From: Piper betle
Lineage: Eukaryota; Streptophyta; Magnoliopsida; Piperales; Piperaceae
Direction: 5' to 3'
Length of the DNA stretch: 64,000 bases
Assembly: GCA_033002965.1 (NCBI GenBank)
Contig: JAURVB010004776.1
Span: 1-64,000, forward strand
Part shown: one piece after another, positions 12,451-64,000 of the stretch
How the letters are laid out: every line of letters begins with the position of its first letter
Numbering within the stretch: position 1 is the first letter of the stretch
Program-made: the position numbers and the translations under genes
The notes under the pieces: model-generated
What the model saw: only the letters and a program-made list of their open reading frames with translations
Told to the model about the DNA's origin: nothing
The model's database searches: none

Positions 12451-13894
12451 ATGGCGGTGGTTGCGGCGGCTCGGCCACTCCGGCGGCAGCCCTCGCCGGA
12501 CTCCGCCGCCGGAAAAATTTCCGGTGGGCGACTCCGTCGTTCTCAGCGTCGGCAGCCGAGCCGTCCCCTTCGCCGAGGAAGCTCGTCCTGTACTCGAAGC
12601 CCGGGTGCTGCCTGTGCGACGGCCTCAAGGAGAAGCTCCACGCCGCCTTCTCCTTGGCTGGCCCTGGTTCTCTTGACGACCTGGAGTTGCATGTTTGTGC
12701 TCTTTTCCCGAATTCGAGTCCGTCTTTTACTGACATGACGGGATAATCGGCGGGGAAGTAGTTGAAGTGTTTGTGTAAATGCATTCTGTTTGTGTTGATT
12801 TCAATTTGCAGGTGAGGAATATTTTGGACAATCCTGAGTGGGAGAGGTTGTATCAGTATGAGATTCCTGTGTTGGCTAGAGTTCTCCCAGACGGCTCTGA
12901 GGTTCGCATGATTTTTTTGTGTGCATATATGCATGCTTTATGTTTATATTCTTGACTAATTTCGTTTCATTATCTTTATAAATGTTACTGCTCTTGATTG
13001 TTGGTTACGAATATGATAAGAGTTTGTTTGAGGAAATGACTTGTTTGCATGCCTGGTTAGTAGTTAGTCGGGATCATAATGGTTGCTCTTGATTTTGGTG
13101 AATCTTTAAGTATTGTTGGCTTTTTTCTTCCCCCAAAAAATATTGTTGATTGGGACATAGGATTTTCTCTTTGAAGTGGTGCTTGATTACTTGTTACTGA
13201 AGTAGGCGTCGTTTCAATCCATATAGAAGGTATTTCTGTTGCATCAAATGGTGGCTGCAACTGTTATGCAACTGACCAATTGAAGCATGAAGGGCTATCT
13301 TGCTTAGCGGGAAAGTTCAACTTGTAAAGAGTAAAGAGTTGTGCTACGTACTTCCAAACCCCATTTTTTAATCACGTTGATGGGTTTTTAAATAATGGGA
13401 GTTATGCTAAATAAAGTGAATTTTGGAAGTACAAGTAATATTTTCTACTTGTAAAATATCTTACTAAATAAAATTAGTGCAGTAAATGGCGAAGAAGAAA
13501 TAACGGCAGGCCGTAAGTTCATTATATGTTTACCTTGACAAAAACTTCATTTGATTTTATTGAGTAACTGAATTCCTTAAATCAATAGATAGTGATACGA
13601 AAACACATATCTGCCTCTGGATGTGTTTCATTTTATGTTGGTTCAAAAAACTCTGATTGAGATTATTTCAACTTCTATGGAGAATTTTTCGAAAGTCACA
13701 TTTTCTAGCTCACAAAATTCTCCTACAAATTTATTTTTGATTCTGAAAACTGCGATACTGCAGTTGCATGTTATTTTTAATCTTTGCATGAGCGTTCATA
13801 TTTGAGACCACTGTTGCAGCAGGTCCTCCCAAGACTTTCGCCTCGTTTGGGAGTTGAGCTTATACAAAAGAAACTAGCTGCTGCCTTCAGCTAA
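12451..13894 (+). CDS. Glutaredoxin-like protein (DUF836 type), three exons, frame broken in exon 1
   Basis: A small thioredoxin-fold protein of the glutaredoxin-like DUF836 family, probably plastid-targeted from its Ala/Arg/Ser-rich start. Exons: 12451-12692, 12812-12901 and 13820-13894, with GT-AG borders and phase 0 throughout. The redox motif is in LVLYSKPGCCLCDG, with Cys53 and Cys56 in corrected numbering. Exon 2 gives EWERLYQYEIPVLARVLPDG, and exon 3 ends QKKLAAAFS. The ATG at 12451 (MAVVAAARPL) is in a different frame from the domain, and the domain frame has no ATG after its last upstream stop. One missing base between 12454 and about 12590 joins them; the A5 run at 12513-12517 is the likeliest site. 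With that base the product would be 135 residues. Exon 3 has a NAGNAG acceptor. Confidence 0.82.
13348..13432. mobile_element. Possible small MITE in intron 2 of the glutaredoxin-like gene
   Basis: A perfect 11-bp inverted repeat (GTACTTCCAAA at 13348-13358 and TTTGGAAGTAC at 13422-13432) bounds 85 bp of AT-rich sequence. No clear target duplication is visible, so this may be only a hairpin. Confidence 0.3.
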
Positions 13895-14212
13895 AGCTGA
13901 GTCCATGCCTTGACAACTAATTGATTGCTGGAAGATACTGTAGAAATGGCTATTCCAGTTCATTTTTCATTATCATTGCCAGCACGGGGGCAAGAGCATA
14001 TCTCCTGGTTTGGATGCGTTGAAGATTTTCACGTTGCAGCTGACAAAAAATGCAACTTCTGTAGCAGTTTCTTATCTTATTTCCTTACGTTCTTTAAATT
14101 GTAGACATTTATAATTTTCATATAATTGTTGATTATTACTTGGAAATATCGACTTAATTTAGATGTACTAAACCATTTGGCGATTGAATTTGCGAAATGT
14201 GAAATTAACTCT
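13895..14212. other. 3' flank of the glutaredoxin-like gene
   Basis: Presumably holds the 3' UTR. No other feature is recognised. Confidence 0.4.
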
Positions 14213-14530
14213 AGTACACAAGTGTAGGTATGCTAGTCCTCTTCATGGCCATGGTTAACCAAATGTCAAACTGTCCTTACCTCTAAATCAAAAATGTGAG
14301 TGAGTACACAACTGTAGGTATGCTAGTCCTCTTCATGGCCATGGTTAACCAAATGTCAAACTGTCCTTATCTCTAAATCAAAAATGTGAGTGAGTACCAA
14401 ATGTCAAACTGTCCTTGCCTCTAAATCAAAAATGTGAGTGAGTACACAACTGTAGGTATGCTAGTCCTCTTCATGGCCATGGTTAACCAAATGTCAAACT
14501 GTCCTTACCTCTAAATAAAAAATGTGAGTG
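14213..14530 (+). repeat. 90-bp minisatellite, 3.5 units
   Basis: Units lie at 14213-14302, 14303-14392 and 14441-14530 (90 bp each, nearly identical). A short unit at 14393-14440 (48 bp) lacks 42 internal bases. Each unit starts AGTAC and ends AATGTGAGTG, and contains CTTCATGGCCATGGTTAACC. Confidence 0.92.
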
Positions 14531-61605: not shown

Positions 61606-61620
61606 CACGTGACACGTGGC
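61606..61620. promoter_or_regulatory. Paired G-box/ABRE motifs upstream of the GH9 gene
   Basis: CACGTGACACGTGGC contains two CACGTG cores 8 bp apart, the second in the ACGTGGC form bound by bZIP factors in abscisic acid responses. It lies about 1.15 kb upstream of the GH9 ATG, so its target is uncertain. Confidence 0.4.
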
Positions 61621-62760
61621 ATGTGTACCCTGTGTGCGGGCCCACACCCGTGTCCCACAAACGTTGATGTCGACATAGAGATCGGAACATTAAAAGAAGG
61701 GAATCATACGTACTGTATATATATACAAACCGTGGTATATGTGGGGAGAAAAATTGGGGCTTTTCAACCGACGGATTGACAGAGAAGCAAAATGGAGCAC
61801 ACATCGGGACGTCCAAACATGTGGCCGGGCCGCGCCGTTTAGGTTAACTGAGATGTGTCGGTCGGGGGCAAGCCGGGCCATTGAGGGGTGGAGTGTGACG
61901 CCGGGGGGCTGGGCCGAGGCAATGCTCGTCAACACACGAAAAAGTGCTCCCACCCTCCCATCACCGACACCATTTACCGGCAACGGCATCGTAAATCTCG
62001 ACGCAACGGGGCGTGGAGATGTGTCGGAAGTGGGAGTTACACAGACCAAAACCGAAAAACATAAAAGTGTTTGAAGTTTGAAGTGAGGACGTAGCCAAAA
62101 TCACGCCACGCACTTCGCTTGTATCTGCAGTCAAATCTAATTGTTAGCAAGTAAATTACGACGTTTTCATTGTTTGAGACCGAGACGTCAATCTACACAC
62201 CTTTTCGTAGTAGATCTGGTCTGACTCTTATGCCAACAAGACCGCCGTCTACTGCATAATAAGATGTAGACGTCATGGAAGATTTGGTTCAAAACAAACA
62301 CCTCCTCGGTCCTCCTCCTACCCAAAACAAAAACACAAGTGTTCTTGGTTCAACTTCCCCGTCCGTAGCTCCGTTCTGGTTTCTTCGTCGAGCTGCGTTG
62401 CGCGCGTGCATTTGGGTTTTGGCTATGTGAATTATTAAAGCGAGCGAGAATATTGATGGGGTACTATTTGGAATGGAAGTAGAAACCTCTAACGACAGTC
62501 CAGTCCCCAAGATTCGGTGGCAGCCAGGGTTCATTTGGTAAGCTCATTCATTTCCGCCGTTACACACGTTGCTTCCCCCTTGATTCAATACGGTTGATTA
62601 TAAGGGGGGAGTGAGACAAAGAAACTTAACGAACAGACTGGAAAGAGAAAGGAGGCATTGAAAGAGAACCTCCCCTCTTCCTTGTGCGTGCCTACTGCCT
62701 TGCCCTTCTTCTTTCCGGGTTTTGCTTTGGGGCGGACCATCTATCCCTTTGGAGGGGAGG
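61621..62760. other. GH9 gene upstream region
   Basis: Moderately GC-rich. A TATA-like run (GTATATATATAC, about 61715) precedes a 111-codon open frame at 61739 that has no recognisable content. A TTATAAGG near 62598 could serve the GH9 gene. Confidence 0.4.
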
Positions 62761-64000
62761 ATGGCATTGGAGCGCAGAATATATCCCCATTTAATTGTGC
62801 TTGCAATGCTAATGTTTGTTGTCGCCGGAGACGCCGTCGACTTTGATTATGGCGAGGCACTGGCCAAGAGCCTTCTCTACTTCGAGTCTCAGAGATCTGG
62901 CCGTCTGCCTTACAACCAGCGAGTCACTTGGCGGGGCCATTCTGGCCTCACTGGATGGCCTTGAGCATGGAGTGAGTCATCCAATCTCTTCCAGCCAATC
63001 TTTGTTCTAACCTAGTAAAGCTAATAATGCATGTTCTGTACTTTTGTTCTAGTTTTGTTTTCCTGGGCTTTTCTTTAACCAAGGAATTGAAGACAAAAAT
63101 AGAACGATACGTTCTTTATTAAACAAAATGACGAAGAGTTGTTGATGATCGGTTAGGTTAAGTTTAAAAAGGAAATAAAGATGTGTAAAGGATGCAGGTG
63201 GATCTGGTGGGAGGATATTACGACAGCAGGGGACCATGTCAAGTTCGGACTTCCCATGGCCTTCACAATCACCATGCTGTCTTGGGGTGTCTTGGAGTAT
63301 GGTGACGAGATTGCTGCTGCGGGGGAATACGGCCATGCTTTGGAAACCATCAAATGGGGAACCGATTACTTCATCAAATCTCACACCCATCCCTATGTTC
63401 TCTGGGCCGAGGTATAGCCTTGTACCTCTTTTTTCTCAAAAGTCGCTAAAGTTGCAGTTAAATAGGACTTTGTTAGCTTAATGCGGATTTCGGGAAGCTT
63501 TCCTTTAAAATTGAATTGTTTAGAGTTGGATGGTGGACTAGGTTGGAGACGGAGAAACGGATCATTACTGTTGGCAAAGGCCCGAAGACATGACGACGTC
63601 AAGACGAGCCTATAAGATTGATTCATCCAACCCCGGTTCTGATCTCGCGGGTGAGACAGCGGCCGCCTTGGCTGCTGCATCCCTTGTCTTTCGTCGAACC
63701 AATCCGCATTATGCCCACATTTTGCTGCATCACGCTCAACAGGTTCGTCCAACATCCAAAAAGCAGAGCAACCATCTCAATCCCCTTCGCTTGAGATAAG
63801 GTATTATGCACTTGTTGTATGTGTGATTTCAGTTATTTGAGTTCGCGGACAAGTTCAGAGGGAGCTACGACAGCAGCATCCCGGTGGTGAAGAACTACTA
63901 TGCATCGGTGAGTGGGTACAGGAGACGAGCTGCTGTGGGCAGCGTTGTGGTTGTACAGAGCCACCGGCGAGAGGGAGGATTACCTGACCTATGTAGTGAA
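62761..64000 (+). CDS. GH9 endo-beta-1,4-glucanase, 5' part, three frame breaks; runs off the window
   Basis: A secreted glycosyl hydrolase family 9 cellulase acting on wall glucans. Exons: 62761-62971, 63198-63411, 63542-63742 and 63833 to beyond the edge. A signal peptide (LIVLAMLMFVVAGDA) precedes FDYGEALAKSLLYFESQRSG and LPYNQRVTWRGHSGL. The catalytic GGYYDAGDHVKFGLPMAFT has DAGD at about residues 79-82 once corrected. Exon 3 is fully intact (HYCWQRPEDMTTSRRAYKID, NPGSDLAGETAAALAAASLV). Three extra bases break the frame: G at 62953/62954, A at 63225 and A at 63920. Removing each restores the family sequence (LTDGLEHG, YYDAGDH, SGYGDELLWAAL) and exon phases. The catalytic C-terminal motifs lie outside the window. 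Confidence 0.9.

What the first reader, a model, noticed from the sequence alone, without database searches (positions are those of the whole stretch)
12451..64000. Systematic single-base frame breaks in seven of twelve recognisable genes
Single-base corrections are needed in the glutaredoxin-like gene (1 loss), DUF7036-type gene (3 losses), root cap gene (1 loss), aspartic protease (1 loss), SAUR 3 (1 loss), GH9 (3 gains) and SAUR 2 (2 gains, or 1 loss). Most losses fall in runs of 3-6 identical bases. After correction, exon phases and lengths become exact (470 codons, 102 residues, matching splice phases) and conserved residues are unchanged. Unrelated single-copy families would not all decay this way, so I infer residual consensus error in a long-read assembly. 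Gene predictions from this sequence would be split or truncated, and ORF-based screens would miss them. The ELO, ERF, WAT1, ARGLU1-like and SAUR 1 genes are intact, so the error is patchy.
Basis: partly seen in the sequence, partly recalled or inferred. Interest (0 to 1): 0.75.

Follow-up and report, generated by a model that had tools for sequence, protein, structure and literature searches.

The report
Frame breaks from long-read assembly errors
Several plant genes here appear broken by one missing or extra letter, often in short runs of G or C; the same pattern turns up in unrelated genes elsewhere in this assembly, so these are almost surely sequencing-consensus errors and not dying genes.

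Summary
Most of the frame breaks are real in the letters and are best read as consensus errors. A frame-tolerant alignment to 20 relatives per gene needs 3 one-base gains in GH9 (20 of 20 each), 1 loss in the aspartic protease (20 of 20, in a G run) and 3 losses in DUF7036 (20 of 20; 18 of 20; 11 of 20). No in-frame stop is crossed in the 60 alignments. Root cap and glutaredoxin breaks rest on frame reading. SAUR2 is misdescribed: it has a 17-base deletion plus a gained T and may be a true pseudogene.

Of 87 GRAS loci listed, 45 are whole in one frame and 25 fall into two pieces. Of 20 breaks fetched, 14 of 20 intervals hold a G/C run of 4 or more, against 5.1 expected; 0 of 2000 random placements reach 14. 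Four paralogue pairs share their break. Intact HSP70 and GRAS exons carry 3-4 times fewer such runs. A gene just beyond the window is broken too.

A duplicate DUF7036 gene is open at two of the three sites. No reads were examined.

The parts
12451..12692 (+). Glutaredoxin-like (DUF836) gene, first exon; ATG frame and domain frame differ; break somewhere between the ATG and the domain (A run 12513-12517 is a candidate)
   Evidence: site not placed by relatives
16765..20125 (-). DUF7036 gene, four exons (20125-19895, 18152-18043, 17966-17599, 17520-16765)
   Evidence: Pfam PF23041, relatives, frame-tolerant alignment, duplicate copy on C159
20045..20050 (-). Run of six G (on the minus strand) at the exon 1 break; the C159 copy is also broken here
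   Evidence: 11 of the 11 alignments that reach the ATG; 11 of 20 in all
17773..17777 (-). Frame break in DUF7036 exon 3, one base short; the C159 copy has one base more and is open
   Evidence: (20 of 20)
17076..17091 (-). Frame break in DUF7036 exon 4 at a run of five C, one base short; the C159 copy has one base more and is open
   Evidence: 18 of 20 short, 2 of 20 as two gains
23667..24779 (-). Root cap family gene, two exons; frame break near 24045-24047, one base short
   Evidence: Pfam PF06830, sequence; no relatives aligned
43076..44484 (+). Single-exon nepenthesin-type aspartic protease; no second copy in a DNA search of this assembly
44096..44101 (+). Run of six G where the protease changes frame, one base short
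   Evidence: 20 of 20 relatives
46957..47265 (-). SAUR1, open
50920..51200 (-). SAUR2: one gained T and a 17-base deletion over the LRLPC motif; possible true pseudogene
56586..56895 (-). SAUR3: frame change near 56693-56695, net one base short
62761..64000 (+). GH9 endoglucanase (endoglucanase 11-like), exons 1-4 up to the window end; the gene runs on to contig position 64865
62950..62956 (+). GH9 exon 1, one base over
   Evidence: 20 of 20
63222..63228 (+). GH9 exon 2, one base over
   Evidence: 20 of 20
63917..63924 (+). GH9 exon 4, one base over
   Evidence: 19 of 20 at 63920, 1 of 20 at 63917

Best explanation
The breaks are residual indel errors in the consensus of a long-read plant assembly. 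Run length of G or C (and sometimes A or T) is called one base too short where several equal bases follow each other, which shifts the frame of GC-rich exons; a minority are single-base insertions. Shown: breaks of the same type recur in unrelated families on many contigs and concentrate on G/C runs. Inferred: the sequencing technology, and the absence of the change in the plant's DNA, because no reads or second assembly could be examined. SAUR2 is excluded from this statement.
For: Recurrence: GRAS domains (PF03514; 110 of 156 candidates scored) gave 112 matches at 87 loci; 45 loci are whole in one frame (3 of the 45 with one inner stop), 25 fall into two pieces (23 in different frames) and 17 have one partial piece. 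I fetched 20 breaks: 18 of the 25 two-piece GRAS loci and 2 HSP70-like loci. 14 of 20 break intervals hold a G/C run of 4 or more (mean of random placement 5.09; 0 of 2000 reach 14); 8 of 20 hold one of 5 or more (mean 1.51; 0 of 2000 reach 8). The frame is that of one base short in 17 of 20 and the other in 3 of 20. Dose effect: intact GRAS (6 fetched) and HSP70 (6) exons have 3.09 and 2.63 G/C runs of 4 or more per kb; the broken stretches have 10.22 (about 7.7 if one run per stretch is left out, since they were centred on breaks), the broken window genes measured 8-17. Four paralogue pairs, 93.6-97.5% identical over 401-base stretches, share the same break with 0 gap columns, as expected if the run itself causes the error. 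In the window: unrelated genes, 0 in-frame stops in 60 alignments, mean identity to relatives 50-75%. DUF7036: dN/dS 0.36 against its duplicate over 470 codons and 0 stops; the duplicate is open at two of the three sites. Of six long ORFs that I gave to Pfam from 19 other 10-kb stretches, two ORFs of a PPR gene and two of a RING gene make up genes that change frame at a G/C run (L025, L018). Literature: errors in long reads are predominantly short indels at homopolymers; in one bacterial assembly most indel errors were false deletions, most often after four to five equal bases (passages of PMC12007338).
Against: No reads, transcripts or second assembly. The best listed proteins are 65%, about 50% and 73% identical, so no transcript of this species was found. 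All six HSP70 loci with the two-exon structure have an open long exon (9.9 kb in all), so the error rate is not uniform; the window has 7 breaks in 4.4 kb (GH9, protease, DUF7036) against 18 fetched, close-set breaks in 86 kb of GRAS matches, an excess only partly explained by G/C-run density. The open window genes ELO, ERF and SAUR1 have as many G/C runs (9.94 per kb) as the broken ones. GH9's three changes are gains outside long runs. In noncoding sequence the two DUF7036 copies differ by 16 indels and 176 substitutions, which shows no clear excess of indel errors. Six of 20 break intervals hold no G/C run of 4 or more. Some broken loci elsewhere are probably real pseudogenes (HSP70 copies on C610 and C1535). 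Of the other two of the six ORFs given to Pfam, one PPR gene (L016, 672 codons) is open and one has no hit.
Confidence: 0.92

Rival explanations
1. Genuine recent pseudogenes: genes made redundant by a genome or segment duplication are decaying, and the window is one fractionated copy.
For: A duplicate of the DUF7036 gene exists (C159, 91%) and is open at two of three sites. SAUR2 has a 17-base deletion. Tandem SAUR genes often decay (recalled).
Against: The protease has no duplicate in a DNA search, so redundancy does not explain it. Both members of four GRAS pairs carry the same break, and both DUF7036 copies share the exon 1 break. Breaks follow G/C runs. No stop codons in 60 alignments and dN/dS of 0.36.
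Confidence: 0.05
2. Mixture: most breaks are consensus error, while SAUR2, and possibly SAUR3, are true pseudogenes in a tandem SAUR array. This refines the main reading rather than opposing it.
For: 17-base deletion in SAUR2; 19 of 150 listed SAUR matches in this assembly have an inner stop (my count on the table).
Against: SAUR3 has one net base short and an open C-terminus in the other frame, as in the other genes.
Confidence: 0.6
3. The given bases are right and the reading frame is restored in the cell, by transcript slippage or ribosomal frameshifting at G/C runs.
For: Breaks sit on G/C runs and are shared by paralogues.
Against: It would require a new expression mechanism in many ordinary genes whose relatives are plainly in frame; GH9 has three gains outside long runs; sequencing error explains the same facts.
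Confidence: 0.01

Closest known systems
Gene-fragmenting indel errors in long-read assemblies (Kastor paper PMC12007338, passages seen; Polypolish PMC8812927, start of abstract seen)
   Same: Mostly one-base losses at short homopolymers, a minority of insertions; genes look like pseudogenes; unrelated genes affected.
   Different: Here it is a 527-Mb plant draft, breaks were found by protein families and not by reads, and G/C runs dominate in the coding sample, whereas in that bacterial example A/T runs were the commonest.
Fractionation pseudogenes after whole-genome duplication
   Same: A duplicate copy exists (DUF7036 on C159) and single copies look broken.
   Different: Both copies of four GRAS pairs share the break, breaks track G/C runs, no stop codons in the genes aligned, selection still visible in the one gene tested.

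Membership tests
Long-read consensus indel error | Breaks concentrate at homopolymer runs above chance | tested here: met
   14 of 20 intervals with G/C run of 4 or more, mean of random placement 5.09, 0 of 2000
Long-read consensus indel error | One-base losses outnumber gains | tested here: met
   17 of 20 outside the window; in the window 4 losses and 3 gains among the seven breaks aligned to relatives
Long-read consensus indel error | Unrelated genes on many contigs affected | tested here: met
   GRAS, HSP70-like, PPR, RING and LysM-like genes
Long-read consensus indel error | No accompanying nonsense substitutions in the broken genes | tested here: met
   0 in 60 alignments of three genes; 0 stops in 470 codons of both DUF7036 copies; the other broken genes not tested this way
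Long-read consensus indel error | Accurate reads contradict the given base | not testable with these tools
   no reads available; no same-species protein among those listed
Genuine pseudogenes | Relaxed selection on the broken copy | tested here: not met
   dN/dS 0.36 between DUF7036 copies; only this gene tested, and a two-copy ratio cannot assign branches
Genuine pseudogenes | Larger lesions or stops besides one-base indels | tested here: inconclusive
   absent in GH9, protease, DUF7036; present in SAUR2 (17-base deletion)

The most novel reading that the evidence does not exclude
The short G/C runs are real and conserved between paralogues, and this plant expresses many ordinary genes through slippage at such runs. 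The evidence does not strictly exclude it because no reads were examined.
Probability: 0.01. Interest if true: 0.85.

Novelty: not a real feature. Interest (0 to 1): 0.12.

Why it matters
As biology it is ordinary. As a warning it matters: in this assembly 42 of the 87 GRAS loci listed are not whole in one frame (some for other reasons, such as introns or divergence), and the damage is biased towards GC-rich exons with G/C runs. Any count of pseudogenes, gene loss or family size from this assembly would be distorted in that direction, and single-frame searches would miss or truncate such genes.

Tried and rejected
Homopolymer length spectrum: the window has 3 A/T runs of 10 or more, and 20 ten-kb stretches, one of them overlapping the window, have 13 in 200 kb; no comparator plant genome was at hand and the window does not differ from the rest, so I draw nothing from it. 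Uniform error rate: rejected because of the six open HSP70 exons. Second copy of the protease: none found. Species identification: nearest named proteins of the protease and GH9 are Aristolochia, which suggests a magnoliid; size and GC resemble published Saururus chinensis figures (0.53 Gb, 37.76% GC; passages of PMC11139940), but this was not tested and no name is claimed. Searches used a wrong-strand HSP70 query and their HSP70 part was discarded in favour. One search timed out and was rewritten. Duplicate copies of GH9, root cap and glutaredoxin genes could not be looked up because the genome search stayed busy. Seven two-piece GRAS loci were left out of the 20 fetched (C9748, C4117, C10121, C6821, C6826, C4478, C9321), because their pieces lie further apart or in one frame and may be introns or divergence; HSP70-like loci C1919, C610, C5473, C1535 and C4479 were not put through the run test. 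The 19 stretches L010-L028 lie on contigs that the SAUR search had named, so they are not a random sample; of 166 ORFs of 110 aa or more in L009-L028 I gave ten references to Pfam, four of them from L009.
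Full report
What was checked. The window is bases 1-64000 of contig C3552 (125,806 bases) of an unnamed plant assembly of 527 Mb in 11,211 contigs. The nearest listed relatives of its aspartic protease and GH9 endoglucanase are Aristolochia proteins at 65% and 73% identity.

The observation. 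I aligned three of the broken genes to 20 relatives each (of 120 listed per search) with a method that allows two- and four-base codons at a cost. GH9 needs three extra bases, at 62950, 63222 and 63917-63920, in all 20 relatives (19 show only these three; one shows two more near the start). The protease needs one missing base at 44102, directly after the six-G run 44096-44101, in 20 of 20 (one relative shows a further change at 43101). DUF7036 needs one missing base at 17774-17777 in 20 of 20 and one at 17076-17091 in 18 of 20; the other 2 make the same change of frame as two gains. In exon 1, 11 of 20 alignments reach the ATG and all 11 need one missing base; the other 9 end before it. No in-frame stop codon is crossed in any of the 60 alignments. 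The protease halves on either side of the break are equally conserved (66% and 70% identity to P0001). Root cap and glutaredoxin breaks are seen as a change of frame between coding parts but were not aligned to relatives. ELO, ERF and SAUR1 domains are open; WAT1 was not verified.

An exception. SAUR2 was described as two gains or one loss. Aligned with its neighbours it has one extra T and lacks 17 bases over the LRLPC motif that both SAUR1 and SAUR3 keep. This looks like a true lesion. SAUR3 is one base short on balance near 56693-56695, but its letters allow other readings.

The test outside the window. If the breaks are errors of the assembly, other conserved genes must show them. GRAS domains (374 profile positions, mostly without introns as recalled) gave 112 matches at 87 loci, 86,085 matched bases, from 110 of 156 candidates scored: 45 loci whole in one frame (3 of them with an inner stop), 25 in two pieces (23 of them in different frames), 17 with one partial piece. 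For HSP70, all six loci in the table with a short first exon and a long second exon have the long exon open, while a few other HSP70-like loci change frame. I fetched 401 bases around 20 breaks, 18 of the 25 two-piece GRAS loci and 2 HSP70-like loci. In 17 of 20 the downstream part lies in the frame expected for one base short, in 3 of 20 in the other. 14 of 20 break intervals hold a G or C run of at least four, where random placement in the same stretches gives 5.09 on average and never 14 in 2000 trials; for runs of at least five the figures are 8 of 20 against 1.51, again 0 of 2000. Of the six misses, L052, L055 and L056 have a G run just outside the interval in the printed sequence and L054 has a six-T run; L053 and L059 have none.

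Why some genes escape. Intact GRAS and HSP70 exons (6 each) carry 3.09 and 2.63 G/C runs of four or more per kb; the broken stretches carry 10.22, or about 7.7 if one run per stretch is left out because they were centred on breaks; the window's broken genes measured carry 8 to 17 (SAUR2, SAUR3 and glutaredoxin not measured). Susceptibility follows run content. It is not the whole story: the open window genes ELO, ERF and SAUR1 together carry 9.94 per kb, and the window has more breaks per kb than GRAS genes as a whole, so coverage or chance also plays a part.

Paralogues. Four GRAS pairs of 93.6-97.5% identity share the same break with no gap columns in the stretches compared. The DUF7036 gene has a duplicate on C159 (3.5 kb, 91%). 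It is open at the two sites where the window copy is short in exons 3 and 4, and shares the exon 1 break at the G run. Between the copies dS is 0.0925 and dN 0.0336, ratio 0.36, over 470 codons with no stop in either. Selection has acted on these genes, which speaks against long-dead copies; it cannot exclude very recent lesions in one copy. In noncoding sequence the copies differ by 176 substitutions and 16 indels, so no clear excess of indel errors shows there.

More of the same. Beyond the window, a LysM-like gene (Pfam scores just below cut-off) at L009 about 7758-8647 appears to change frame several times in a C-rich exon (the order of its conserved segments is recalled from known LYM proteins, not aligned). 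In the 19 other 10-kb stretches, which lie on contigs named and of which I gave only six long ORFs to Pfam, a PPR gene (L025) and a RING gene (L018) change frame at G/C runs, another PPR gene (L016, 672 codons) is open, and one ORF (L010) has no hit.

Explanation. Residual long-read consensus error, mainly run-length undercalling at G/C runs, explains the recurrence, the direction, the context and the absence of stops. Published work on long-read assemblies reports similar errors: short indels at homopolymers predominate; in one bacterial assembly most indel errors were false deletions, most often after four to five equal bases, with A/T runs commoner than G/C runs, and insertions were not tied to a particular homopolymer (passages of PMC12007338). 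The GH9 gains, which lie outside long runs, are at least not at odds with that last point.

What remains open. No reads, no second assembly and no same-species transcripts were available. Duplicates of GH9, root cap and glutaredoxin genes could not be looked up because the genome search stayed busy. The finding is an artefact with one probable true pseudogene in it (SAUR2).

Noticed in passing
L009:7758-8647 (contig C3552 about 67758-68647): LysM-like gene just beyond the window (Pfam scores below cut-off) appears to change frame several times in a C-rich exon; GH9's last exon before it is open.
   Followed up: partly
G000:C159:65355-68858 (L068): Duplicate copy of the DUF7036 gene, introns included, 8.75% noncoding and 4.7% coding substitutions; suggests a segment or genome duplication.
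   Followed up: partly
GRAS loci C10182, C10360, C10603, C11104, C1064, C350, C6120, C370: Eight GRAS loci break at nearly the same profile position (about 140), at or beside C/G runs; a recurrent sequence context.
   Followed up: yes
G000:C610:33411-35212 and G000:C1535:3-1714: HSP70 copies that look like real pseudogenes: one appears largely intron-free, the other has 12 in-frame stops in one 633-base match.
   Followed up: partly
window 1240-1684 and 11462-11898: Two similar GC-rich stretches in opposite orientation whose translations correspond (for example LELDSSQLLITRMPPCDFYPPPPP); similar text also in L022, probably a dispersed repeat.
   Followed up: no
window 50920-51200, minus: SAUR2 lacks 17 bases over the LRLPC motif and has one extra T.
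   Followed up: yes
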